Of a DNA stretch of 64,000 bases, positions 1,231 through 12,803 are shown in pieces. Position 1 is the stretch's first letter; the number at the start of each line of letters is the position of its first letter. This DNA comes from Arthrobacter sp. zg-Y20 (lineage in GTDB: Bacteria > Actinomycetota > Actinomycetes > Actinomycetales > Micrococcaceae): positions 3,162,001 to 3,226,000 of the forward strand of contig NZ_CP126241.1 of the NCBI RefSeq assembly GCF_030142075.1, written 5' to 3'. A program made the position numbers and the translations under genes. A model generated the notes under the pieces. It was not told the origin of the DNA and did not search any database. It worked only from the letters and a program-made list of their open reading frames with translations.

Positions 1231-1599
1231 GGTGGAGATGGGGGGAATCGAACCCCCGTCCGGTGTTGTATTGTCAGGGCTTCTCCGGGCGCAGTATGCG
1301 TCGGATTTTCTCGGCCCCAGCCATCTTGCAAACGAGTGGCTGATCCGGGCCCAGCCGTCATAAAGTCCCGAACACCCCGACGGCAGAGGTATTCAGCAGT
1401 GGCCCTCTAAACGACGCCAGCATCCGGAGCGAGAGCGACTCCGGGCTGACGGACTACTCCGGCTGCTTAGGCAGCGAGAGCGAAGTCAGTGCGCATAGGT
1501 TTGGCACTTATTTTTTTGCAGAGAGCGTTAACGAGATAACTCTGCGTTCTCGGCCCGCTTCCCCTGGCTCAACAAACATCGTCGAAACCGATCATCCCC
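1231..1599 (-). ncRNA. ssrA: Transfer-messenger RNA (tmRNA)
   Basis: Rescues stalled ribosomes and adds a degradation tag. The 5' end GGGGATG pairs with CATCTCC at the 3' end (one G-U pair), the discriminator is A, and the T arm with GGTTCGATTCC is intact. The CCA tail is not fully encoded (CCG follows). The tag reading frame lies at 1467-1505 and reads AKPMRTDFALAA then TAA; the ending ALAA is the expected ClpXP signal and the middle resembles tags of other Micrococcaceae. The length of about 369 nt is typical of one-piece actinobacterial tmRNA. Ends were chosen from the acceptor stem. Confidence 0.96.
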
Positions 1600-1804: not shown

Positions 1805-2671
1805 ATGATCAAGGAAGTGCCGCCTGCGGCGGAAATGCAGGAAGGCACGGTGCCCCGGCACCACCAATTGATCGTTACGCTGTTTGGCCTCTATGCCCGG
1901 ACCCCGGGAGCAGGCATTCAGGTGGCCACCATCATCCGGCTTCTACAGGACGCCGGTGTCGGTCCGGCGGGGGTGCGCTCCTCCATCTCACGCTTGAAGA
2001 AGCGGGGTGTCCTGGAAAGTGTGACCGTCCAGGGCCGCAGCGGATACGCCCTGTCGTCCGGGATGCAGGACACCTTCCGCGAAGGTGACGAGAGGATTTT
2101 CCATCCCCGCCGCGCCGGCATTGAGGATCCCTGGCTGCTCGCCACCTTCACCGTCCCTGAATCCCAGCGCAATATCCGGCACAAGATCCGCAGCTCACTG
2201 GTGCGGATGGGTTTCGGATCAGTCACCCCGGGGCTATGGATTGCCCCCGGACATTTGCGTCCCTCGGTTCTGTCCTACTTCGAAAACCGCGGTATGGGCC
2301 AGTACCTGGAGTTTTTCCTCGCCGACCACGTTGGCAGCAGTGACATGCGGGCCAATGTGGCGCAGTGGTGGGACCTGCCGGCGCTCGAGCTTCAGTACGC
2401 CGAGTTCATCCGCCTCCAGCAACCGCTGCTGGAACGCTGGCTCGACGGCGGGCAGCCCGTTGCGGACCGCATGGCCCGCGCGTTCGTGGACCACTTGCTA
2501 CTGCTCACCGAATGGCGTCGGCTCCCGTACCTGGACCCGGGGCTGCCGGTGGAGCTGCTCTCCAAGGACTGGAATGCGCTGGAGGCACACGACCTCTTTT
2601 CCCGGCTGCACTCCGTTCTGGGTCCGCTGGCCGAAGCGCACGCGACCGCCGTCATCGACGACGTTCCCTAG
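1805..2671 (+). CDS. PaaX-family transcriptional regulator
   Basis: Transcription factor of the PaaX family, whose members repress aryl-CoA catabolic genes and respond to aryl-CoA thioesters. The 288-residue protein has an N-terminal winged helix (about 20-75) with the typical VRSSISRLKKRG recognition segment, then the PaaX central and C-terminal domains. An upstream in-frame ATG at 1715 would add 30 unconserved residues, so the ATG at 1805 was chosen. It faces the RidA gene and lies 0.6 kb before the aryl-CoA operon, making it the likely regulator of that operon; that role is inferred from position and family. Confidence 0.88.
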   Translation: MIKEVPPAAEMQEGTVPRHHQLIVTLFGLYARTPGAGIQVATIIRLLQDAGVGPAGVRSSISRLKKRGVLESVTVQGRSGYALSSGMQDTFREGDERIFHPRRAGIEDPWLLATFTVPESQRNIRHKIRSSLVRMGFGSVTPGLWIAPGHLRPSVLSYFENRGMGQYLEFFLADHVGSSDMRANVAQWWDLPALELQYAEFIRLQQPLLERWLDGGQPVADRMARAFVDHLLLLTEWRRLPYLDPGLPVELLSKDWNALEAHDLFSRLHSVLGPLAEAHATAVIDDVP

Positions 2672-2687
2672 TTCCGGCTCGTCCCGG

Positions 2688-3089
2688 CTAGTCCCGGTCC
2701 TGGATTACGGCGACGCCCTGGATCTCGATGACCGCTTCCTTCTGCCACAGCCGGCTGACACCGATCCCGGCCATCGCCGGATACTCCGACCCCGCCATCT
2801 CACGCCAGATACGGCCAATTTCGCGGCCGTTGGCCATGTAGTCGTCCACATCCGTGAGGTAAATGGTCACGGATACCAGATCCTCGGGACGACCGCCCGC
2901 CTCGGCCAGCGTTGTCAGCACATTGCCGAAGGCCTGCCGGAACTGTGCAACCACACCGCCTTCCACAATCCGCATCTCTGCATCCAGGGCAGTCTGCCCG
3001 CCCAGATAGACCGTGTTCCCCGACAGCACGCCGTGCGCATACCCCGACGGTTTGGGCAGCGAAGAGGGGTTGATGACCTTATTCTGCAT
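2688..3089 (-). CDS. RidA-family protein, non-canonical
   Basis: A 133-residue YjgF/YER057c/UK114-fold protein. Canonical RidA hydrolyses enamine/imine intermediates using an Arg in a PAR motif near residue 105; here the equivalent segment reads YPAMAG, so Met106 replaces that Arg and the canonical imine deaminase reaction is unlikely. The ATG at 3089 was preferred to one 27 bases upstream because it has AGGAGG at the right distance. It is divergent from the aryl-CoA operon across about 160 bp holding two inverted repeats, so a role on an amino- or oxo-aryl intermediate is plausible. Function is inferred from context only. Confidence 0.85.
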   Translation of the reverse strand: MQNKVINPSSLPKPSGYAHGVLSGNTVYLGGQTALDAEMRIVEGGVVAQFRQAFGNVLTTLAEAGGRPEDLVSVTIYLTDVDDYMANGREIGRIWREMAGSEYPAMAGIGVSRLWQKEAVIEIQGVAVIQDRD

Positions 3090-3124
3090 TGCGGTTTTTC
3101 CTCCTGAGCGGATCACTTTCCTGC

Positions 3125-3155
3125 GTGCAAATGCCTCTGTTCAAGCCATTTGCAC
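3125..3155. promoter_or_regulatory. Inverted repeat in the RidA/FAH divergent promoter
   Basis: Perfect 9-bp arms GTGCAAATG (3125-3133) and CATTTGCAC (3147-3155) are separated by 13 bp, giving 22 bp between arm centres, about two helical turns. It lies 36 bases upstream of the RidA start and about 95 bases before the FAH gene. This is what a dimeric repressor site looks like; PaaX is the nearest candidate. There is no second copy at the transporter operon. Confidence 0.55.
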
Positions 3156-3175
3156 CGTGCTACATTGAGCCTACG

Positions 3176-3190
3176 TGACGCCAGTCACAA
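3176..3190. promoter_or_regulatory. Candidate operator TGACG-N3-GTCACAA, copy 1
   Basis: The 15-mer from 3176 matches the element at 12852-12866 in 12 of 15 positions, with only the three central bases differing. Arms GTGAC/GTCAC make it an inverted repeat. It lies about 60 bases before the FAH start. The shared site suggests co-regulation of the catabolic and transport operons. Confidence 0.55.
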
Positions 3191-3250
3191 AGTCGACATA
3201 TTCCTCGGGACTGCTTCCACGGCCGGGGAAGACACAGGCAGGGAGAGCAT

Positions 3251-4108
3251 ATGAAGCTGGCAACCATAGCCGCCGGGGGCGGCACAAGCGCGGCCGTTGT
3301 GCTGCCGGACGGAAGCTACCTCCCCTTGGACGCACCAAACCTCAGCGCCCTGCTTCAGCAGGACCAATGGCGCGAAGAGGCAACCCGGCAGGCCGCCGCA
3401 TCGGACGCCGTCGCCCGTTCCGTCCCGCGGGAAGGGACCACGCTGCTCAACCCGCTCCCGGTGCCGGCCAAGGTCATTTGCTGCGGCCTGAACTACAGCG
3501 AGCACATCTTGGAGATGGGCCGGGAGCTTCCCCGGTTCCCCACACTCTTCGCGAAATTCGCGGACACCCTCACCGACCCCTTCGCGGACCTGGACATCAG
3601 CGGCAGTGAAAGCGTGGATTGGGAGGGCGAACTCGCCGTCGTGGTGGGAACCGCCCTCCGCCATGCCGACGAGGCTGAAGCAGCAGCAGGAATTGCCGGC
3701 TACACCGCGGCGAACGATATCTCCATGCGGGACTGGCAGAACCGGACACTGCAGTGGTTCCAAGGCAAGGCCTTTGACCGGAGCACGCCCCTGGGGCCGA
3801 TGCTCGTCACCGCCGACGAACTGGATCCGGAGGCCGGAGTGGAGGTCAGCTGCTACCTCAACGGCGAGCGCATGCAGCACGGCAATACGGCCAGCCTGGT
3901 CTTCAGCGCCGCCCGCCTGCTCTCCTATATTTCCACCTTCACCGAGCTGCGTCCGGGCGACATTGTCCTCACCGGGACCCCCGGCGGAGTGGGCATGGGC
4001 ATGAATCCTCCCCGCTATCTGTCCGACGGCGATGTCCTCACCACCGAGGTGGGCGGGATCGGCCGGCTGGAAAACCACATCCGGGTCTCCTCCCGGGTCA
4101 CCGCCTAG
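3251..4108 (+). CDS. Fumarylacetoacetate hydrolase (FAH) family protein
   Basis: FAH-fold enzyme of 285 residues. The family hydrolyses or decarboxylates diketo acids such as fumarylpyruvate or oxo-heptenedioate with a divalent metal. The metal ligands are visible as E135-G-E137 and Asp166, with the GLNY motif at 89-92 and a KAFD substrate loop near 183. The start has GGGAGAG upstream. It is first of five genes reading in one direction with short gaps or overlaps, followed by cupin, thioesterase, CoA ligase and monooxygenase/reductase. In this setting it probably cleaves a late, ring-opened or dearomatised intermediate. The exact substrate cannot be read from sequence. Confidence 0.85.
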   Translation: MKLATIAAGGGTSAAVVLPDGSYLPLDAPNLSALLQQDQWREEATRQAAASDAVARSVPREGTTLLNPLPVPAKVICCGLNYSEHILEMGRELPRFPTLFAKFADTLTDPFADLDISGSESVDWEGELAVVVGTALRHADEAEAAAGIAGYTAANDISMRDWQNRTLQWFQGKAFDRSTPLGPMLVTADELDPEAGVEVSCYLNGERMQHGNTASLVFSAARLLSYISTFTELRPGDIVLTGTPGGVGMGMNPPRYLSDGDVLTTEVGGIGRLENHIRVSSRVTA

Positions 4109-4151
4109 AGCATCCACCCACCGGCGCCCACGGTGCCAGGAAAGGAAAATC

Positions 4152-4622
4152 ATGACCGCGTACAGCGTCGAAGGAGACAACTCCGTTTATGCCGGCCCCG
4201 ACGGGCAGGTGGTGCCCGTGGTGACGCGGGCCGGGGAGGAAGACACCAACACCGCCCAGTCCGGGGACTGCGTCCGGGTCTCCGGCGTAAGCATCCAGCA
4301 CACTCCGGCCACCAAAATCTGGTTCGGGCAGGTATCCAATGTGCCCGGTTACCGGTCGCTCCCGCATCACCACGGCGAAGCGGAAACCGGCGGCTATGTC
4401 CTCCGCGGCCACGGACGCATCTATTTCGGTGCGGACTACTCCGAGTACCTGGACATGAAAGCCGGAGACTGGGTCTTCGTGCCCCCCTTCATGCCCCATG
4501 TGGAGGCCAACATGTCGGTCACAGAGGAGCTCGTCTGGCTCACCGCGCGGACCCCGGAAAACATTGTGGTCAACCTGGACGACGTGCCGGACGAAACGCT
4601 GGACGGATACCGCCGCTCGTGA
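4152..4622 (+). CDS. Small single-domain cupin, possible metal enzyme
   Basis: A 156-residue protein with one cupin barrel. Motif 1 gives His72-His73-His74 with Glu76/Glu78, and motif 2 gives PPFMPHVEAN with His116, so a full metal site is present. It is far shorter than gentisate 1,2-dioxygenase (bicupin, about 350 residues). Good RBS (AGGAAAGG) 44 bases after the FAH stop; its TGA overlaps the GTG start of the thioesterase, implying translational coupling. Because the operon has no other oxygenase able to open a ring, this cupin is the candidate ring-cleavage or isomerising enzyme; that is inference. Confidence 0.85.
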   Translation: MTAYSVEGDNSVYAGPDGQVVPVVTRAGEEDTNTAQSGDCVRVSGVSIQHTPATKIWFGQVSNVPGYRSLPHHHGEAETGGYVLRGHGRIYFGADYSEYLDMKAGDWVFVPPFMPHVEANMSVTEELVWLTARTPENIVVNLDDVPDETLDGYRRS

Positions 4623-5488
4623 ACTCGGACACCTTCCTGCAGGCCATCGAGCTCAAGCCCACCGTGGCGGAGATCTTTGACCAGGCCTACACCGCCATGC
4701 CCCAGTACGTTCCCTGGCCCAAGGCCTACGGCGGGGACATGGTGGCGCAGGGTGCGCTGGCCATGATGCAGTCAGCCGCCGCGGACCGCCGGCTGCACTC
4801 CATGCACAGCTACTTCCTGCGGCCGGTGGATGTGGGGATTCCGGTCCGGTACGAGGTGGAGCTCCTGCGCGACGGGCGCGGCTACTCCACGCGGCAGGTG
4901 CGGGGCTACCAGAACGGAAAGCCGGTCTACGCAGCACTCGGGTCCTTCCACGTGCCCGAAGACGGCCCGGAGTATGAGCCGGACCTGCCGGCGTCGTACG
5001 CAGGCGTGGATCCTGAGTCCCTCGCCAGCGCCGCCGACGTGCTGGACGGCCACGACGGCGACGACGCCCGCTACTGGTCGGCCGGCCGCAGCTTCGACAT
5101 GCGCCATGTTCCGGGACCGCTGTACCTGGAAACCGGCAGCGGCGTCACCGCCCACCAGGCCGTGTGGGTCAAGGCTTTCTCGGAACTCCCCGATGATCCG
5201 GCGATCCAGCGTGCGGCCCTGGCCTATGTCTGTGACTACACCATCCTGGAACCCCTGCTCCGGGCCCACGGACTGGCCTGGGCAACCCCCGGGTTGACCA
5301 CCGCAAGCCTGGACCACGCCATGTGGTTCCACCGTGACGGCCGGGTCGATGACTGGGTGCTCTACGCCCAGGACGCCGTTTCCTCCCAAAACAACCGGGG
5401 GCTGGCAGCGGGCCGGTTCTTCACCCGGGACGGGACCCTGCTGGCCACGGTGGCCCAGGAGGGCATGATCCGCGGTCCCCGCTCCTAA
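4619..5488 (+). CDS. Acyl-CoA thioesterase II (TesB family)
   Basis: Double-hotdog thioesterase of 289 residues that hydrolyses acyl-CoA to free acid and CoA. Features of TesB are visible: the N-terminal YGGDMVAQ segment, the C-terminal LAYVCDYTIL with the catalytic Asp, LDHAMWFHR, and SSQNNRGLA with the catalytic Gln. The GTG start at 4619 overlaps the cupin TGA by four bases; longer in-frame readings upstream have no support. In an operon that also encodes an aryl-CoA ligase it likely releases CoA from the hydroxylated product or relieves CoA trapping. Confidence 0.88.
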   Translation: MNSDTFLQAIELKPTVAEIFDQAYTAMPQYVPWPKAYGGDMVAQGALAMMQSAAADRRLHSMHSYFLRPVDVGIPVRYEVELLRDGRGYSTRQVRGYQNGKPVYAALGSFHVPEDGPEYEPDLPASYAGVDPESLASAADVLDGHDGDDARYWSAGRSFDMRHVPGPLYLETGSGVTAHQAVWVKAFSELPDDPAIQRAALAYVCDYTILEPLLRAHGLAWATPGLTTASLDHAMWFHRDGRVDDWVLYAQDAVSSQNNRGLAAGRFFTRDGTLLATVAQEGMIRGPRS

Positions 5489-5529
5489 CCCATCCCAGGG
5501 ACACCAGCCCAGCTACGGAAAGAGGCACC

Positions 5530-7155
5530 ATGGAACTATCCCCCTCGGCCCATCAGGACACCTTCACGCGCGACCACCTTCCGCCCGGGGAACAATGGCC
5601 GGTGCTGGAGTTCACCCTTCCCGAACTGCAGTACCCCGACCGGCTCAACGCTGCTGAAGCACTGATTGATGACACCGCTGCCGCGATGGGCGCCGACCGC
5701 ACCGCGCTGCTGACCCCGGACGGTGAGCGGTGGAGCTACGGACTGCTGCTTGAGCGTTCCAACCAGGTTGCCCGGGTACTGGCCGAAGACCTTGGCGTTG
5801 TTCCGGGCAACCGGGTGATGCTGCGCGCGCCCAACAACCCGTGGCTCGTGGCCTGCTGGCTGGGCGTACTGAAGGCGGGCGCCGTTGTGGTGACCACCAT
5901 GCCTGCCCTTCGTGCCGGGGAAATCGGCACACTGATGGAACTGACCCGCCCCACGGCGGTGCTCTGCGACCACCGGTTCCTGGCGGACATGAGGACCGCG
6001 GCCGGCGAGGTGCCGGTGGTCCCGGTGGGCGGCGACGACGACGGCGACCTCACCGTCCTGTCTGCAGCCAAACCCGCCAGCTTCACCAACGTGCAGACTG
6101 CCGCCGACGATGTTGCCTTGCTGGGGCCCACCTCCGGAACCACGGGCACACCCAAAATCACCATGCACTTCCACCGCGACATCCTGGCCAATGCCGACAC
6201 TTTCGCGCGGCACATCCTGCAGCCGGTTGCCGATGATGTCTTCGCCGGCTCACCGCCCCTGGCCTTCACCTTCGGCCTCGGCGGACTGGTGGTTTTTCCG
6301 CTCCGGTTCGGTGCCAGCGCCCTGCTGACCGAGCGCACCACTCCGGCCCAGCTGGCCGAACTGAGCCGGAAGGCCGGTGCCACCGTGCTGTTCACCGCGC
6401 CCACCGCTTACCGGGCCATCATCAAGGAAGGGCTCGCCGATCTGCTGCGCCCGCTGCGCATGGCCGTCTCGGCCGGCGAGCATCTGCCGGAGGCAACGTG
6501 GCGGGAAGTGAAGAAGGAGACCGGTCTTGAACTGGTCAACGGAATCGGCTCCACCGAAATGCTGCACGTCTTCATTTCCGCTGCGGGCAGCGATATCCGC
6601 CCGGGTGCCACCGGACGTACCGTGCCCGGTTTCCGGGCCACCATCCTGGGACCCGATGACGAGGAAGTGGCCCCCGGGGAGATCGGGCGCCTGGCCGTCA
6701 TTGGTCCCACCGGCTGCCGGTACCTGGATGACCCGCGGCAGGAAAACTATGTGGTCAACGGCTGGAACGTCACCGGGGATACCTTCCGCCAGGACGCCGA
6801 CGGCTACTTCTACTACCAGGCCCGGTCCGACGACATGATTGTCTCCTCCGGCTACAACATCGGCGCCCCGGAAGTTGAGGCCGCCCTGAACCAGCACCCC
6901 GACGTACTGGAAAGCGCTGTGATCGGCCGCCCCGATCCCGAACGGGGATCCATAGTCCTCGCCTTTGTGGTGCTGCGGGAGAACGTTCCGCCGGGGGACG
7001 CGAAGGCCGTCGAACTGCAGGACTTCGTCAAACAGGTGATCGCGCCGTACAAGTATCCGCGCGCCATTTCGTTTGTCGACGAGTTGCCCCGGAACCCCAG
7101 CGGCAAGCTCCAGCATTTCAAGCTCCGCGAAATCGTTGAAACGGCCCAGGCCTAG
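5530..7155 (+). CDS. Benzoate/2-aminobenzoate-type CoA ligase
   Basis: A 541-residue ANL-superfamily adenylate-forming enzyme: aryl acid + ATP + CoA to aryl-CoA. The phosphate loop TSGTTGTPK, the NGIGSTEMLHVF motif characteristic of the benzoate-CoA ligase branch, the hinge RSDDMIVSSGYNI, and the catalytic Lys in NPSGKL near the C-terminus are all present. It starts behind AAAGAGG. It lies directly before the fused monooxygenase/reductase, the arrangement known for 2-aminobenzoate-CoA ligase and 2-aminobenzoyl-CoA monooxygenase/reductase in Azoarcus evansii. Substrate (2-aminobenzoate or salicylate) is inferred from that neighbour. Confidence 0.9.
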   Translation: MELSPSAHQDTFTRDHLPPGEQWPVLEFTLPELQYPDRLNAAEALIDDTAAAMGADRTALLTPDGERWSYGLLLERSNQVARVLAEDLGVVPGNRVMLRAPNNPWLVACWLGVLKAGAVVVTTMPALRAGEIGTLMELTRPTAVLCDHRFLADMRTAAGEVPVVPVGGDDDGDLTVLSAAKPASFTNVQTAADDVALLGPTSGTTGTPKITMHFHRDILANADTFARHILQPVADDVFAGSPPLAFTFGLGGLVVFPLRFGASALLTERTTPAQLAELSRKAGATVLFTAPTAYRAIIKEGLADLLRPLRMAVSAGEHLPEATWREVKKETGLELVNGIGSTEMLHVFISAAGSDIRPGATGRTVPGFRATILGPDDEEVAPGEIGRLAVIGPTGCRYLDDPRQENYVVNGWNVTGDTFRQDADGYFYYQARSDDMIVSSGYNIGAPEVEAALNQHPDVLESAVIGRPDPERGSIVLAFVVLRENVPPGDAKAVELQDFVKQVIAPYKYPRAISFVDELPRNPSGKLQHFKLREIVETAQA

Positions 7156-7191
7156 ATCCACACCGGACACCCGGTATTGAAAGGACACACC

Positions 7192-9588
7192 ATGAAGATC
7201 GCAGTTGTCGGCGGCGGCCCCGGAGGGCTCTACTTTGCCGCATTGATGAAGCAGCTGGATCCTGCGCACGAGGTGACCGTGTGGGAGCGCAACGCCGCGA
7301 GCGACACGTTCGGGTTCGGCGTCGTGTTCTCCGACGAGACCCTTGGCGGCATCGGGAACGCGGACACCGAGATTGCCGCCGCCATGTCCCGGCGTTTTGC
7401 CCGCTGGACGGACATCGACATCCATTTCCGGGGTGAGCAGCACACCGTGGGCGGACAGGGCTTCGCCGCCATGAGCCGCAAGGAACTGCTCGAACTGCTG
7501 CAGCAGCGGTGCGGAGACCTCGGCGTCGACGTCCGGTTCTCCACGCTGGCCCCCGACGTCGCCGAGCTCAGCCGCACCCATGACCTGGTCCTCGCCGCCG
7601 ACGGCCTCAATTCCGCCATCCGCGGCGCCTACGCGGATTCCTTCAAACCGTCGCTGGACCTGCGCCGTTCCAAGTACATGTGGCTGGGAACCGACCTTGT
7701 GTTCGAGGCCTTCAAGTTCTTCATCAAGGACACCGAGCACGGCGTCATGCAGATCCACGGTTACCCGTATTCGGACCAGGGCTCCACCTTCATTGTCGAA
7801 ATGCATGAGGATGTATGGCGTTCGGCCGGCTTCGACGAAACTGAAGGGCAGGTGTTCCCTCCCGGCGTCAGCGACGAAGCAGCAATCGCCCGGATCACGG
7901 AAATCTTCCGGGACGAACTGCAGGGACACAGCGTTCTGTCCAACAACTCCAAGTGGCTGAACTTCACCACCGTGCGCAACGAAAACTGGCGGCACGGGAA
8001 CATCGTCCTGCTTGGCGACGCCGCCCACACCGCGCATTTCTCGATCGGCTCAGGCACCAAACTCGCCATGGAGGACTCCTTGGCGCTGGCTGCCTGCCTG
8101 CACGAGCATCCCGATGTGGAGACCGCGCTGGCGGCCTATGAGGCGGAGCGGCGTCCCGTGGTGGAATCCACCCAGCGTGCCGCACAGGCTTCGCTCGAAT
8201 GGTTTGAGAACATCGGCCAGTATGCGGGCCAGGATCCGGTGCAGTTCTGCTTCAACCTGCTCACCCGCAGCCGCCGCATCACCTACGACAACCTCAAGCT
8301 CCGCGACCCTGGCTTCGCCGCCCTGGCGGACAAGGCCTTCGCCGAGTCCGCCGGCGTGCAGGACGTGGCACCGGCCATGTTCCAGCCGGCCCGCATCGGC
8401 AGCCTGGAACTCAAGAACCGCATAGTGGTCTCCCCCATGGACATGTATTCGGCGGTGGACGGGCTGCCGGGGGACTTCCACCTCACCCACCTGGGCAGCA
8501 AGGCGCTGGGCGGCGCCGGACTGGTGATGACCGAGATGGTCTGCGTGTCCGACGTCGGCCGGATCACCCCGGGCTGCACCGGCCTGTACTCCGATGAGCA
8601 AGCTGCCGGCTGGCGGCGGATCGTGGACTTTGTCCACCAGCAGTCCACGGCCAAGATCGGTGCGCAGATCGGGCACTCCGGACGCAAGGGGTCCACCCGG
8701 CTCATGTGGGAGGGTATTGATGTTCCGCTGGAGGACGGCTGGGACGTGATGGGTCCGTCGGCGCTTCCCTACGGCGAGAACTGCAACGTGCCGCGGGAAA
8801 TGGACCGATCCGACATGCAGCAGGTCTTGGCGGAGTTTACCGACGCGGCCCGCCGTGCTGCCGATGCCGGCTTTGATTTGCTCGAACTCCACGCCGCGCA
8901 CGGATACCTTCTGTCCTCCTTCCTCTCCCCGCTCTCCAACCGGCGCACGGATGAATACGGCGGCAGCCTGGCGAACCGGCTGCGCTATCCCCTCGAAGTT
9001 TTCGACGCCGTCCGGGCGGCCTGGCCGGCCGAGCGCCCGCTCACCGTCCGACTGTCCGCCACGGATTGGGTTGAGGGCGGAAACACCGACGACGACGCCG
9101 TGGAGATCGCGCGTGCGTTCATCGCCCACGGGGCAGACGGAATCGACGTGTCCTCCGGCCAGGTCTCGAAGGAGGAAAAGCCGGCGTTCGGCCGCAGCTA
9201 CCAGACACCCTTTGCGGACAAAATCCGCAACCAGGCGGCAGCTGCTGCCGGCGTGGCCGTTATCGCCGTCGGCGCTGTTTCCTCCTACGACGACGTGAAT
9301 TCCATCCTGCTCGCGGGGCGCGCCGACTTCTGCGCGTTGGGCCGCACCCACCTGTACAACCCGCAGTGGACGCTGCAGGCCGCGGCGGAGCAGGACTACC
9401 GGGGGCCGGGAGCGGATTGGCCCCTGCCGTTCAAGGCCGGCCGGCGCAAGCCGCCCAGTGCCCGGACCGACGCCGTCCGGCCCCGGCTGTCGCTGCTGCG
9501 TGAACTGGAACCGGAATCCGCTGCGACGCACGTGCGGTGGACACCAAACGCCGCCCGGTCTGCGGAAGTCCTGGCTTCGGGCGTATAA
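7192..9588 (+). CDS. 2-Aminobenzoyl-CoA (or salicylyl-CoA) monooxygenase/reductase fusion
   Basis: Two-domain flavoenzyme of 798 residues. Residues 1-390 are a class A flavin monooxygenase with GGGPGG at 7-12, a DG motif (AADGLNS) and LLGDAAHTAHFSIGSG. From residue 396 an old-yellow-enzyme domain begins (QPARIGSLELKNRIVVSPM) with LELHAAHGYL and SNRRTDEYGG. This is the architecture of Azoarcus 2-aminobenzoyl-CoA monooxygenase/reductase, which hydroxylates and then reduces the ring, and of proteins annotated as salicylyl-CoA 5-hydroxylase/oxidoreductase. The ATG at 7192 has GAAAGGA upstream; a TTG 15 bases earlier is less likely. Last gene of the operon, followed by a strong terminator. Which aryl-CoA it uses is not decidable here. 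Confidence 0.9.
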   Translation: MKIAVVGGGPGGLYFAALMKQLDPAHEVTVWERNAASDTFGFGVVFSDETLGGIGNADTEIAAAMSRRFARWTDIDIHFRGEQHTVGGQGFAAMSRKELLELLQQRCGDLGVDVRFSTLAPDVAELSRTHDLVLAADGLNSAIRGAYADSFKPSLDLRRSKYMWLGTDLVFEAFKFFIKDTEHGVMQIHGYPYSDQGSTFIVEMHEDVWRSAGFDETEGQVFPPGVSDEAAIARITEIFRDELQGHSVLSNNSKWLNFTTVRNENWRHGNIVLLGDAAHTAHFSIGSGTKLAMEDSLALAACLHEHPDVETALAAYEAERRPVVESTQRAAQASLEWFENIGQYAGQDPVQFCFNLLTRSRRITYDNLKLRDPGFAALADKAFAESAGVQDVAPAMFQPARIGSLELKNRIVVSPMDMYSAVDGLPGDFHLTHLGSKALGGAGLVMTEMVCVSDVGRITPGCTGLYSDEQAAGWRRIVDFVHQQSTAKIGAQIGHSGRKGSTRLMWEGIDVPLEDGWDVMGPSALPYGENCNVPREMDRSDMQQVLAEFTDAARRAADAGFDLLELHAAHGYLLSSFLSPLSNRRTDEYGGSLANRLRYPLEVFDAVRAAWPAERPLTVRLSATDWVEGGNTDDDAVEIARAFIAHGADGIDVSSGQVSKEEKPAFGRSYQTPFADKIRNQAAAAAGVAVIAVGAVSSYDDVNSILLAGRADFCALGRTHLYNPQWTLQAAAEQDYRGPGADWPLPFKAGRRKPPSARTDAVRPRLSLLRELEPESAATHVRWTPNAARSAEVLASGV

Positions 9589-9600
9589 ACCGCCCCCTCC

Positions 9601-9650
9601 AAGGGAAAGGTCCCGTCTTTACAAGAGACGGGACCTTTCCCTTTGTGCTT
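9601..9650 (+). terminator. Strong terminator of the aryl-CoA operon
   Basis: Perfect 18-bp stem (9601-9618 with 9626-9643) and a 7-base loop, ending in CCCTTT and a T-rich stretch. The stem begins with AAGGGAAAGG, so the minus strand also ends in a pyrimidine run and the hairpin may work in both directions between the convergent operons. Confidence 0.9.
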
Positions 9651-9690
9651 TTGCCGGGCTCTTGGCAGGCTCTCTTTGGCCGGGCTGCTC

Positions 9691-9734
9691 AGTGGCTGCT
9701 TAGTGGCTGCTTAGTGGCTGCTTAGTGGCTGCTG
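9691..9734. repeat. Four tandem 11-bp units at the 3' end of the ThDP gene
   Basis: AGTGGCTGCTT is repeated three times, with a fourth copy ending in G. The unit spans the TAA stop and last codons (Ser-Ser-His) of the ThDP-dependent enzyme, so the gene end is followed by extra in-series copies of its own stop region. Confidence 0.9.
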
Positions 9735-11380
9735 AAGGCCTCGGCGAGCCACCAGGCACCGTTGTCCGACGTGATTTTGGCGTCGATGACCAGCGGCCGG
9801 CGCGGGCCTGATGCCAGCCACTGAGTTACGGCTTCCAGGTCCTCGGCCTTTCGGACGGTGAGCCCGTCTGCACCGAAACCACGTCCGATGGCTGCCGCGT
9901 CCGTTTCCGGGAACACCACCGTGCCCATGTCAGCATGCGGATTGTCCGCACCGAAGTGATGGACCTCTGCTCCGTAGGCGGCATCGTTGTACACAACGCA
10001 GACCAACGGCAGGTGGAGCCTCACGGCGGTTTCCAGTTCCGCCAGGGCCATGTGGAAGCCGCCGTCTCCGGTCCCGAGGACCGGGAGACGGTCCGGGCGG
10101 GCTACAGCTGCTCCGATCGCGGTGGCCAGGCCTAAGCCAACGGACTGGAACGCCTGCGTGAAACAGAACCCGAACTCGTCCGGAACGTCGAGGAACTGGC
10201 TTGGATAGCCCATGAAATTGCCGGAGTCCACAGCAACAATCCGTTCTGCCGGCAGCAGCTCGTCTAGCCTGCGGGTCAGGACGCGCGGATCGATCCTGCC
10301 GCCGGCTGAGGAATCCACCAGCGGCTCATCCCGCCACCGGATGGAGGCGGCGATGCGCCGGCGGACGGCGTCGGTCCGGTACCCGGTGCGCGCCGCGTTC
10401 CCGCGGCTGGACAGTTCCGCAAGTACCGCCGTCGCCGTTTCGGCCGCGTCGCCCTGCACTCCCAAGGTGATCGGACGGTTGGCGCCGAGCGCTTCGTCCT
10501 CCAGATCGACCTGGACCACGGCGGTTTCGGGGCCCACAAGATGCCCGTGCCGCATGGTCCACATATTCAAGGCGCAGCCGAAACCGACCAGCAGATCCGC
10601 GTCCGTGATCAGCTCAGCCGCCAGGGGTGAGGCGAACCCGCCGGAAATGCCCAGGCTGAACGGGTCTGCGTTGAACAGCCCCTTGGCCACCGCGGAGGTA
10701 GCCACCAGGGCACCGCTGCGGCGGGCCAACGCCAGCAGTTCGTTCCGTGCCCCTCTGCCTCCCCGGCCGGCAATGATTACCGGACGCCGGGCCTTTTCCA
10801 GCAGGTCTGCGAGCGCGGCAACAGATCCTGCACCCGGCCGCACCGGATCGGGCCGCCGCAGGGCGGGGACCGGCTGCGAAGGAATTTGCGGCACTGCTTG
10901 GGCCTGTACGTCCAGGGGAAGATTCAGCACAACCGTGCGCCTGTCATTAACTGCCCGGCGATAGGCCCTGACCGTGTCCGCGACTGCGGTCCGGGCAGAG
11001 TGGATCCGTTCGGGAACGGCCAGGACGGACCGGGCGAAGCTGTCCTGATCCATGCTGAAGTTTGAGTTCACGGACGCGGACGGGGCCTCGGCAGCCAGCA
11101 CGATCACCGGTGTCCGGGACTTGGCCGCCTCGCCTATTCCTGTTGCCGCGTTTGTCAGCCCGCACCCCTGGTGCACCGAGACGAGGCCCACCCGGCCGGA
11201 CATGCGGGCATAGGCGTCCGCCATGGTGGCAGCGCCGCCCTCATGCCGTGCGGCGGTAAACGCTACTCCGTGCTCGCGCAGAGAATTTGTCAGGGTGAAG
11301 TTTCCCGACCCCACCACGCCGAAGCAGTGCCCGGCACCCAGTTCCGCCAAGGTCCGGCCCACCAGCTGCGCTACGTTCAT
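9722..11380 (-). CDS. ThDP-dependent acetolactate synthase/benzoylformate decarboxylase-like enzyme
   Basis: A 552-residue three-domain thiamine diphosphate enzyme: PYR domain with catalytic Glu47 in RHEGGA, a central Rossmann-like domain, and a PP domain with the GDGGF cofactor motif near residue 430. The family includes acetolactate synthase, benzoylformate decarboxylase and other 2-oxo acid lyases; I cannot assign the substrate. It starts behind GGAGGA, 58 bases after the transporter gene on the same strand, so the two form an operon converging on the aryl-CoA operon. Decarboxylation or carboligation of a 2-oxo acid from the pathway is a reasonable guess. Confidence 0.85.
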   Translation of the reverse strand: MNVAQLVGRTLAELGAGHCFGVVGSGNFTLTNSLREHGVAFTAARHEGGAATMADAYARMSGRVGLVSVHQGCGLTNAATGIGEAAKSRTPVIVLAAEAPSASVNSNFSMDQDSFARSVLAVPERIHSARTAVADTVRAYRRAVNDRRTVVLNLPLDVQAQAVPQIPSQPVPALRRPDPVRPGAGSVAALADLLEKARRPVIIAGRGGRGARNELLALARRSGALVATSAVAKGLFNADPFSLGISGGFASPLAAELITDADLLVGFGCALNMWTMRHGHLVGPETAVVQVDLEDEALGANRPITLGVQGDAAETATAVLAELSSRGNAARTGYRTDAVRRRIAASIRWRDEPLVDSSAGGRIDPRVLTRRLDELLPAERIVAVDSGNFMGYPSQFLDVPDEFGFCFTQAFQSVGLGLATAIGAAVARPDRLPVLGTGDGGFHMALAELETAVRLHLPLVCVVYNDAAYGAEVHHFGADNPHADMGTVVFPETDAAAIGRGFGADGLTVRKAEDLEAVTQWLASGPRRPLVIDAKITSDNGAWWLAEAFSSH

Positions 11381-11438
11381 GCAGGTCCTCCGCGGACAGG
11401 GCTGGTGCCCGGCACGCGGCCGGGCACCAGCCGTAGGT

Positions 11439-12803
11439 TTATTTGGTGGAACCGGCCGCAGGGGAGGCGGCCGGTACGGCGGTATCCGCAGCCAGGCCGT
11501 CCAGCTGGGGAACCCGCTTGGGGATCATGGCGACCGCGCCGGCGGCAACCAGGCCGATGATGGCAAAGACGGCAAAGTTCCATTCGAACGGAACTCCGGC
11601 ACCGGCGATCCAGCCGCCGATGATTGGACCGCTGATGGCACCGATCCGCGCGAAGCTGAGCGCCCAGCCCGTGGCCGTGGCTCGGGTGGCCGCCGGGTAG
11701 TAGTCCGCAATATAGCCGGTGAGGACCAAGGACGTGGAGATGGATCCAATGCCAGCGAAGGCAACGAAGGCCAGGTTCACCACCATGGAGTTGGGGAACA
11801 TCAGCAGCAGGATTCCCGCTGCACCGAGGATGTAGAAGACCACCAGGATGCGCTTTTGCCCCACCCGGTCTGCGGCGTATCCCAGGACCAGGCCACCGAT
11901 GGCGGAGGCCAGGCTGAAGACTAGAAGGAAGGTCAGCGAGGATCCCAGGTCATAGCCGGCCTTGCGCATGATCTGCGGCAGCCAGGTGTTGAGGCCGTAG
12001 ACCAGGACCATGCCGCAGAACAGCGAGATCCAGAAGAAGACCGTGGACCGGAGGAACCGCTTGGAGAACATGGTGGCCATGACTTCGCGCCAGGGAATTG
12101 CCGCCGTCCCTCGGGCAGGCGGTGCGGGGTTGTAGTTGGGGATGTTCTGGCGTGCGGCGAGGGCTTTGGCCTGCGTGATCCGGCCCTTGGAGACGAGGTA
12201 CTCCAGCGATTCGGGCAGCAGGTAGGCCACGACGGGCAGGATGACCACCGGGAGCGCCCCCACGGCAATGACTGCCCGCCAGCCGAATGCCGGCAGCAGG
12301 GCCATGGCGACCAGTGCCGAGGCAACAATGCCCAGCGAGTAGCCCGAATACATCAAGCCGTAGTTGAAAGAGCGCTTCTTCGGTGCGGAGTACTCGATGG
12401 TCAGCGCGGCAGCCACCGGGATGACGCCGCCCATGCCGAGTCCGCCCAGGAAGCGGAAGAGGCCGAACATTTCCGGGGTGGGTGCCATCGCGGCGCCCGC
12501 CTGCGTCACGGTGAAGATCAGCATGGAAAGCAGCAGCATTTTCTTGCGGCCGATGATGTCGCTGAGGGTGCCGATAAACAGGGCGCCAAAGAGCATGCCT
12601 ACCAGTGCGTAAGCGCCCAGCCCGCCCAGTTCAAGGGGTGAGAGGTCCCATTCCTTGTATTCCGCGAGTGCGGGAAGCACGGCGCCGAGGACGCCGACGT
12701 CGTATCCCTCGGCCAGGATTGCCAGCCAGCAGGCAAACAGCACCAGGCCCGTGGTGCGGCGGGGAATGTTCCATTCAGTCGATGATGGTGCCTGTGTAGC
12801 CAC
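11439..12803 (-). CDS. MFS transporter, AAHS (aromatic acid:H+ symporter) type
   Basis: A 454-residue, 12-helix major facilitator resembling PcaK/BenK-type importers of aromatic acids. The first helix motif EGYDVGVLG with its Asp, the loop 2-3 motif GTLSDIIGRKK, and the repeated loop 8-9 motif GYAADRVGQKR are visible. GTG start with AAGGAG. It is upstream of the ThDP gene and carries a perfect palindrome TGACGATCGTCA about 50 bases before its start. Likely imports the substrate of the aryl-CoA pathway. Confidence 0.87.
   Translation of the reverse strand: MATQAPSSTEWNIPRRTTGLVLFACWLAILAEGYDVGVLGAVLPALAEYKEWDLSPLELGGLGAYALVGMLFGALFIGTLSDIIGRKKMLLLSMLIFTVTQAGAAMAPTPEMFGLFRFLGGLGMGGVIPVAAALTIEYSAPKKRSFNYGLMYSGYSLGIVASALVAMALLPAFGWRAVIAVGALPVVILPVVAYLLPESLEYLVSKGRITQAKALAARQNIPNYNPAPPARGTAAIPWREVMATMFSKRFLRSTVFFWISLFCGMVLVYGLNTWLPQIMRKAGYDLGSSLTFLLVFSLASAIGGLVLGYAADRVGQKRILVVFYILGAAGILLLMFPNSMVVNLAFVAFAGIGSISTSLVLTGYIADYYPAATRATATGWALSFARIGAISGPIIGGWIAGAGVPFEWNFAVFAIIGLVAAGAVAMIPKRVPQLDGLAADTAVPAASPAAGSTK

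What the first reader, a model, noticed from the sequence alone, without database searches (positions are those of the whole stretch)
2688..12803. Aryl-CoA island without a standard ring-cleavage enzyme: a candidate undescribed route for 2-aminobenzoate or salicylate
Seen: PaaX regulator, Arg-less RidA, FAH hydrolase, small cupin with a full metal site, TesB thioesterase, benzoate/2-aminobenzoate-type CoA ligase, flavin monooxygenase/OYE fusion, ThDP enzyme, AAHS transporter. Known: the ligase plus fusion pair matches Azoarcus 2-aminobenzoyl-CoA metabolism, where later steps were thought to be beta-oxidation-like; salicylyl-CoA hydroxylation instead leads to gentisate and a large bicupin dioxygenase. 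Here neither beta-oxidation genes nor a gentisate dioxygenase are present; thioesterase, cupin, FAH and a ThDP enzyme stand in their place. Inference: activation, 5-hydroxylation/reduction, loss of nitrogen, CoA release, cleavage by the cupin or FAH, and decarboxylation by the ThDP enzyme.
Basis: partly seen in the sequence, partly recalled or inferred. Interest (0 to 1): 0.78.

Follow-up and report, generated by a model that had tools for sequence, protein, structure and literature searches.

The report
Alternative ring-opening route for anthranilate
A conserved bacterial gene cluster appears to break down anthranilate (from tryptophan, indoles and quinolines) by reducing its ring and then opening the reduced ring with a small cupin enzyme that uses oxygen, which would fill the unknown second half of a pathway known since around 1990.

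Summary
The genes are real and intact. The block RidA–FAH–cupin–TesB–ligase–fusion is an anthranilate (2-aminobenzoate) cluster, not a salicylate one. [quoted passage not shown] In 296 genomes sampled evenly from the window's class, all 7 with this cupin carry it 3.0–5.1 kb from the fusion. The other 43 fusion loci lack cupin and TesB; 28 of 43 carry acyl-CoA dehydrogenase plus enoyl-CoA hydratase instead. The two downstream toolkits thus appear to replace one another, in two phyla. Proposed mechanism (inferred): the fusion makes 2-amino-5-oxocyclohexenecarboxyl-CoA; RidA helps remove ammonia; TesB releases CoA; the cupin (probably 3-His) opens dihydrogentisate between C1 and C2 with O2; FAH splits succinylpyruvate into succinate and pyruvate. 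The ThDP enzyme is probably not downstream: in relatives it often sits beside isatin hydrolase and may feed in anthranilate. The ring-cleavage step is untested, and the cupin has no detectable sequence kinship to gentisate dioxygenase.

The parts
1814..2671 (+). PaaX-type transcriptional repressor, likely sensing an aryl-CoA (ligand inferred)
   Evidence: PF20803/PF08223/PF07848 over Pfam cut-offs; PaaX-like gene in 64 of 80 related loci
2688..3116 (-). RidA-family protein without the catalytic Arg; candidate enamine deaminase for 2-amino-5-oxocyclohexenecarboxyl-CoA
   Evidence: PF01042; present in 79 of 80 loci; M/L at the Arg position in 64 of 64 aligned
3251..4108 (+). FAH-family C-C hydrolase; candidate succinylpyruvate (acylpyruvate) hydrolase
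   Evidence: PF01557; H85/E88, E125/E127/D156 invariant in 38 aligned rows; 44-47% identical to the FAH beside 7 of 11 gentisate dioxygenase loci, though other FAHs are nearly as close
4152..4622 (+). small single-domain cupin, probable 3-His metal centre; candidate ring-opening dioxygenase
   Evidence: PF07883; H72, H74, H116 with T79 probably at the Glu position; co-located with the fusion in 7 of 7 sampled cupin genomes
4619..5488 (+). TesB-like acyl-CoA thioesterase, start overlaps the cupin stop
   Evidence: PF02551/PF20789/PF13622; 80 of 80 cupin loci, 0 of 43 no-cupin loci
5530..7155 (+). 2-aminobenzoate (anthranilate)-CoA ligase
   Evidence: benzoate-CoA ligase family match, below its cut-off; 72% identical to the ligase at the same place in the pAL1 block, which by position is the one assayed as anthranilate-CoA ligase (PMC3534580)
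7177..9588 (+). 2-aminobenzoyl-CoA monooxygenase/reductase (FAD hydroxylase fused to an old-yellow-enzyme domain)
   Evidence: NF006101 over cut-off, 1224.9 bits; PF00724; 77% identical to the pAL1 enzyme
9722..11380 (-). ThDP enzyme, candidate isatinate (2-aminophenylglyoxylate) decarboxylase supplying anthranilate; accessory, not part of the core
   Evidence: three TPP domains; homologues share the stretch with isatin hydrolase in 16 of the 25 loci that have them
11439..12803 (-). AAHS-family aromatic acid:H+ symporter, probable uptake of the substrate; accessory
   Evidence: TIGR00895 family match below cut-off; AAHS-like gene in 16 of 80 loci

Best explanation
This is an anthranilate degradation cluster with an oxidative, beta-oxidation-free lower pathway. 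(1) The ligase makes 2-aminobenzoyl-CoA (shown for the pAL1 homologue). [quoted passage not shown] inferred here). (3) The Arg-less RidA hydrolyses the enamine to 2,5-dioxocyclohexanecarboxyl-CoA plus ammonia (a CoA ester of that formula was seen in Rue61a; RidA's role inferred). (4) TesB releases the free acid, a dihydro-gentisate (inferred; it could also act after step 5). (5) The cupin, a 3-His metalloenzyme, cleaves C1-C2 with O2, as gentisate 1,2-dioxygenase does on the aromatic analogue or as Dke1 does on a beta-diketone, giving succinylpyruvate, 2,4-dioxoheptanedioate (inferred). (6) FAH hydrolyses it to succinate and pyruvate (inferred). Because the C3-C4 bond is saturated, no maleylpyruvate isomerase is needed. 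PaaX regulates; AAHS imports; the ThDP enzyme may feed anthranilate in from isatinate.
Confidence: 0.47

Rival explanations
1. Hydrolytic ring opening: FAH itself cleaves the 2,5-dioxocyclohexane ring between C1 and C2 without oxygen (retro-Claisen) to 4-oxopimelate or its CoA ester, and the cupin does a side job such as tautomerisation, decarboxylation or repair.
For: FAH-family enzymes hydrolyse C-C bonds of dicarbonyls (family knowledge); the cupin's profile hits lead to decarboxylases and, weakly, KdgF; L092 pairs cupin and FAH with SDR genes, which would also fit sugar-acid chemistry.
Against: 4-oxopimelate would need further genes that the block lacks; it gives the conserved cupin no essential step although the cupin is in all 80 loci (the best 80 by fusion similarity) while FAH varies in lineage and is not seen in the stretch in 15 of 80.
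Confidence: 0.23
2. Aromatic route: the fusion makes 5-hydroxyanthraniloyl-CoA (as reported for the Azoarcus enzyme when NADH is limiting); TesB frees 5-hydroxyanthranilate (or gentisate after deamination) and the cupin is a miniature gentisate-type dioxygenase on the aromatic ring, followed by FAH.
For: 5-hydroxyanthranilate and gentisate were proposed as anthranilate intermediates in Nocardia opaca (Cain 1968, cited in PMC4539516) and gentisate in Alcaligenes (PMC6221969); a CoA ester presumed to be hydroxyanthraniloyl-CoA was seen in Rue61a, which also converts 5-hydroxyanthranilate co-metabolically; FAH is related to gentisate-pathway FAH.
Against: Rue61a does not grow on gentisate or 5-hydroxyanthranilate (I saw no uptake test in the passages read); the fused OYE domain would be pointless; C7H8O4-CoA is a reduced species; no isomerase is annotated in the pAL1 block.
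Confidence: 0.16
3. The island handles a different aryl acid (salicylate or a benzoate) in the window's organism, and the pAL1 relation misleads.
For: NCBIfam names the fusion salicylyl-CoA 5-hydroxylase; Rue61a extracts contained benzoyl-CoA when grown with glucose plus benzoate, possibly made by the same ligases.
Against: Ligase and fusion are 72% and 77% identical to the pAL1 pair; RidA accompanies the block in 79 of 80 loci, which fits an amino substrate; tryptophan, isatin and quinolone neighbours.
Confidence: 0.06

Closest known systems
Aerobic 2-aminobenzoyl-CoA pathway of Azoarcus evansii (ligase plus monooxygenase/reductase)
   Same: Same first two enzymes; the Ruegeria and Paracoccus clusters of that kind also have an Arg-less RidA
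   Different: Clusters of that kind continue with acyl-CoA dehydrogenase, enoyl-CoA hydratase and SDR (Ruegeria, Paracoccus, actinomycetes; Azoarcus by review text only); here cupin, FAH and TesB replace them
Quinaldine/anthranilate plasmid pAL1 (pARUE113) of Arthrobacter sp. Rue61a
   Same: The same six-gene block in the same order with PaaX genes
   Different: There fed by quinaldine genes; no lower pathway was assigned in the passages I read (supplements not seen)
Gentisate pathway (gentisate 1,2-dioxygenase plus FAH-type maleyl/fumarylpyruvate hydrolase)
   Same: Cupin plus FAH pair; same C1-C2 cleavage logic; FAH 44-47% identical to FAHs beside 7 of 11 gentisate dioxygenase loci
   Different: Single small cupin instead of a bicupin, no sequence kinship detected; proposed substrate is non-aromatic, so no isomerase is needed
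Acetylacetone dioxygenase Dke1 (beta-diketone-cleaving cupin; recalled, papers only listed)
   Same: Works like it: small 3-His cupin opening a beta-dicarbonyl with O2 (by inference)
   Different: No sequence relation was tested; substrate proposed here is cyclic with a carboxylate
Isatin hydrolase with ThDP enzyme (indole degradation)
   Same: Window ThDP enzyme belongs to the type found with isatin hydrolase in 16 of 25 relatives
   Different: The window genome has no isatin hydrolase hit

Membership tests
2-aminobenzoyl-CoA monooxygenase/reductase clusters | fused FAD monooxygenase/OYE protein | tested here: met
   NF006101 over cut-off, PF00724 domain
2-aminobenzoyl-CoA monooxygenase/reductase clusters | 2-aminobenzoate-CoA ligase next to it | tested here: met
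   72% identity to the pAL1 ligase; activity of the window protein not assayed
2-aminobenzoyl-CoA monooxygenase/reductase clusters | beta-oxidation-like genes (acyl-CoA dehydrogenase, enoyl-CoA hydratase) in the cluster | tested here: not met
   no hit in the 64-kb window; two weak hits (37%, 33%) in 80 cupin loci
Gentisate 1,2-dioxygenase (TIGR02272) | bicupin sequence family match | tested here: not met
   cupin is 156 aa with one cupin domain; own genome, which contains it, gives no hit to TIGR02272; hhalign 3%
Gentisate 1,2-dioxygenase (TIGR02272) | 3-His iron site without Glu | tested here: inconclusive
   H72, H74, H116 with T79 near the Glu position in 50 of 51 rows, but E78 is one residue away
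Gentisate 1,2-dioxygenase (TIGR02272) | cupin fold close to solved gentisate/salicylate dioxygenases | tested here: inconclusive
FAH-family acylpyruvate hydrolase | His/Glu catalytic dyad and E/E/D metal ligands (roles recalled from FAHD1) | tested here: met
   H85, E88, E125, E127, D156 invariant in 38 rows
FAH-family acylpyruvate hydrolase | cleaves an acylpyruvate | not testable with these tools
   only sequence kinship to gentisate-linked and other FAHs
RidA (Rid1) imine deaminase | catalytic Arg in the PxR motif (recalled) | tested here: not met
   M or L at that place in 64 of 64 aligned
Salicylyl-CoA/gentisate route (sdg type, recalled) | gentisate dioxygenase in cluster or genome | tested here: not met
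   0 hits in own genome; full-length hits in 11 of 50 cupin genomes searched

The most novel reading that the evidence does not exclude
A family of small 3-His cupins oxidatively opens a non-aromatic, partly reduced ring (dihydrogentisate) to succinylpyruvate, and with an acylpyruvase forms a portable ring-opening module (cupin+FAH) that has replaced beta-oxidation in anthranilate pathways of two phyla and also serves other cyclic substrates, as on Alloyangia plasmid 4, where it lies without CoA ligase or monooxygenase.
Probability: 0.38. Interest if true: 0.78.

Novelty: new variant of a known kind. Interest (0 to 1): 0.62.

Why it matters
The lower half of the aerobic 2-aminobenzoyl-CoA pathway is described only as 'enzymes of beta-oxidation' in the review passages read here (PMC4539516), and the link from anthranilate to gentisate in indole degraders is called unresolved (PMC6221969). 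A conserved alternative toolkit with a simple chemical logic (reduce the ring, remove N and CoA, open a diketone with O2, split an acylpyruvate to two central metabolites) makes that question directly testable with four small proteins. It would add a new substrate class for single-domain cupins, correct the misleading label 'salicylyl-CoA 5-hydroxylase' for this group, and suggest a gene for isatinate decarboxylation.

Tried and rejected
Salicylate as substrate: rejected (pAL1 ligase data and lack of growth in Rue61a; neighbours). ThDP enzyme as a terminal decarboxylase: rejected (25 of 80 loci have it; isatin hydrolase in 19 of 80; 16 with both, within 150 bases of each other in 12 of the 16; 9 of the 25 have no isatin hydrolase in the stretch). 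Gentisate dioxygenase elsewhere completing the pathway: no hit in the own genome; 15 of 50 cupin genomes searched have some match, 11 a full-length one. No genome and none of the 14 controls reached the family cut-off (4 of 14 controls matched below it). Cupin as a gentisate dioxygenase family member: no sequence support.

Distant cupins (34-41% identity, 5 loci opened) lie in unrelated surroundings; an intermediate one, L098 (about 50%), again lies beside FAH and an SDR gene, so the border is not sharp. Of 18 plasmid records with a cupin of 60% or more I opened 12: fusion in the stretch in 9, absent in L092, L177 and L097; a clear FAH gene in 10, only a weak and perhaps broken one in L090, and a distant one in L177, where an acyl-CoA dehydrogenase gene also lies nearby, so cupin and ACAD are not exclusive outside the fusion clusters.

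Class sample: all 43 no-cupin fusion loci were fetched (19, 24); 35 of 43 stretches exceed 15 kb, so absences on the rest are weaker, and L211 holds only part of a fusion. Of the 15 without the ACAD+ECH pair, two have ECH only (L201, L205, short stretches), six have isatin hydrolase (L125-L127, L139, L189, L206), three an FAH match (L141, L204, L206) and the rest none of these. Cut-offs: ACAD 40%, ECH 38% identity. The 80 loci are the best 80 of 267 relatives by fusion similarity, so 80 of 80 cupin is not an unbiased rate; the class sample is. The ORF picker was poor and was not used for counts. Proteobacterial whole genomes could not be sampled, so that side rests on six plasmid stretches. 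The FAH tree had open forks and long branches. For the RidA residue only sequences that translated cleanly were kept (64). On re-checking, the window FAH proved only slightly closer to gentisate-linked FAH than to other FAHs; I lowered the main odds from 0.50 to 0.47 and the novel case from 0.40 to 0.38 for that.

Not-in-print claims rest on searches in an open-access library; the 2001 Azoarcus paper was not held and supplements of PMC3534580, which may hold a pathway figure, were not seen. Papers seen: passages of PMC3534580, PMC4539516, PMC6221969, PMC12538310 and PMC13253752; all others only as search listings.
Full report
What is there. Nine intact genes lie at 1814-12803: PaaX, RidA(-), FAH, cupin, TesB, ligase, fusion, then ThDP enzyme(-) and AAHS transporter(-). 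The TesB start overlaps the cupin stop (4619/4622). The fusion exceeds the NCBIfam cut-off of NF006101. The organism's genome is one contig of 3.53 Mb with one full-length copy of the fusion and no hit to the gentisate dioxygenase family. The nearest relative of the fusion found is from Arthrobacter gandavensis, 91% identical.

It is a conserved unit. Among 80 loci found by fusion similarity (the best 80 of 267) the order cupin-TesB-ligase-fusion is kept in 79, RidA is present in 79, and the full order RidA-FAH-cupin-TesB-ligase-fusion in 52. FAH is of another type, strand or place in 12 and not seen in the stretch in 15, one of these (L085) cut by the contig end. The unit is on pAL1 of Arthrobacter Rue61a and on plasmids of Tsukamurella and, partly rearranged, of Rhodococcus.

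The substrate is anthranilate. In pAL1 the ligase (by position the one in this block; the record uses newer gene tags) was expressed and shown to be an anthranilate-CoA ligase; anthraniloyl-CoA, and CoA esters of C7H7NO3 and C7H8O4 acids (identities tentative), were found in anthranilate-grown cells, the last two in those cells only. The strain did not grow on salicylate, gentisate or hydroxyanthranilates, though it converted hydroxyanthranilates co-metabolically (PMC3534580, passages). The window ligase and fusion are 72% and 77% identical to that pair. Neighbours in relatives make anthranilate: tryptophan dioxygenase and a likely kynureninase (L179), kynureninase (L090), both (L079), alkylquinolone genes (L089), isatin hydrolase. 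The NCBIfam name salicylyl-CoA 5-hydroxylase is therefore misleading for this group.

A swap of downstream toolkits. In 296 genomes drawn evenly from the class, the cupin (E 1e-25 or better) is in 7 and the fusion in 48. All 7 cupin genomes have the fusion 3.0-5.1 kb away, and they are the 7 highest-scoring fusion genomes. The other 43 fusion loci were all fetched: 28 of 43 have both an acyl-CoA dehydrogenase and an enoyl-CoA hydratase of the Ruegeria kind, 30 of 43 at least one, 0 of 43 the cupin and 0 of 43 TesB. Conversely the 80 cupin loci gave only two weak ACAD/ECH hits (37% and 33%). G208 carries one locus of each kind. The split also exists in Alphaproteobacteria: four plasmid stretches with fusion, cupin and FAH and two with ACAD+ECH. 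On a tree of 18 fusion proteins the toolkit changed at least three times (gains and losses not told apart). The cupins of the two phyla are 72-80% identical to the window's while the fusions are about 49%. So the cupin moved as a part, and cupin+FAH seems to do the work that ACAD+ECH do elsewhere.

Cupin and FAH work together. At least three FAH lineages partner the same cupin family: the main one, a reverse-strand type in Streptomyces, Kitasatospora, Lentzea and Nocardia, and an alphaproteobacterial type at 35-39% identity. The main FAH is 44-47% identical to the FAH gene lying beside 7 of 11 gentisate dioxygenase loci, in a pathway where FAH enzymes split an acylpyruvate (family knowledge). 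This closeness is not special: over the main-type FAHs the mean is 47.9% to those and 44.8% to other FAHs fetched, and the tree does not join them as sisters. The His/Glu dyad and metal ligands are invariant (roles recalled from FAHD1).

The cupin. H74 and H116 are invariant and H72, H73, E78 and T79 are in 50 of 51 rows. In one profile alignment to oxalate decarboxylase domain 2, T79 stands at the metal-binding Glu; in another (domain 1) E78 does (ligand roles recalled). Counting back from the invariant G86 favours T79, hence a 3-His centre, but this is not settled. The model (pLDDT 68.8) aligns with gentisate and salicylate 1,2-dioxygenases at rmsd about 2 over 97-99 residues, among many tied cupins. 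There is no sequence-level kinship to gentisate dioxygenase.

Proposed mechanism. 2-Aminobenzoyl-CoA is converted to 2-amino-5-oxocyclohexenecarboxyl-CoA; RidA hydrolyses the enamine to 2,5-dioxocyclohexanecarboxyl-CoA, which has the formula seen in Rue61a; TesB frees the acid; the cupin inserts O2 between C1 and C2, the bond that gentisate dioxygenase cuts in the aromatic analogue; the product succinylpyruvate is split by FAH to succinate and pyruvate. This uses every core gene, leaves no product without an enzyme and needs no isomerase, since the ring was reduced. Shown (in a relative): ligase activity and the CoA esters. Inferred: RidA, TesB, cupin and FAH steps and their order. The order thioesterase before cupin is suggested by Alloyangia plasmid 4, where a cupin 80% identical lies with FAH and SDR genes but without ligase, fusion or thioesterase in the stretch.

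The ThDP enzyme. Homologues at 60% identity or more lie within 10 kb in 25 of 80 loci, 16 of them with an isatin hydrolase in the same stretch, next door in 12. The hydrolase matches solved isatin hydrolases (5nmp, E 1.4e-75). I propose isatinate decarboxylation. The window genome gave no hit for the hydrolase but has a kynureninase-like gene (40%).

Novelty. The first two steps and their genes are known; a lower pathway by cupin and FAH was not found in the papers searched, within an open-access library and without supplements. A 2018 review lists the anthranilate gene cluster and the gentisate link in indole degraders as open (PMC6221969, passages).

Noticed in passing
L092 8992-9420 and 12247-13089: Alloyangia pacifica plasmid 4: cupin (80% identical to the window's) and FAH with three SDR genes and a TRAP transporter, without ligase or fusion in the stretch; suggests a CoA-free cyclic substrate for the module.
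   Followed up: partly
   Followed up: partly
L177 7878-9426: Pacificitalea plasmid: stand-alone alkene reductase directly before a cupin of the same family (80%), beside TRAP transporter genes; resembles an OYE-plus-cupin pair as in the window.
   Followed up: no
L090 5863-7012: Arthrobacter sp. ERGS1:01 plasmid: only a weak FAH match (39%) and no annotated gene between RidA and cupin, so this FAH may be broken; another plasmid of the strain (NZ_CP012478.1) also carries a fusion and a cupin.
   Followed up: no
window 1231-1599: A tmRNA gene lies just upstream of the PaaX gene, a possible insertion neighbourhood.
   Followed up: no
L097 7962-8390: Rhodococcus ruber plasmid: cupin relative (61-67%) with one metal-site His replaced by Arg (position 72), beside MaoC, CoA-ester lyase and FAH genes; possibly a decaying or re-purposed copy.
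   Followed up: no
RidA genes of no-cupin fusion loci L128-L143: An Arg-less RidA (M in 13 of 14, S in 1) also accompanies no-cupin clusters, so it belongs to the shared upper part of the pathway.
   Followed up: yes
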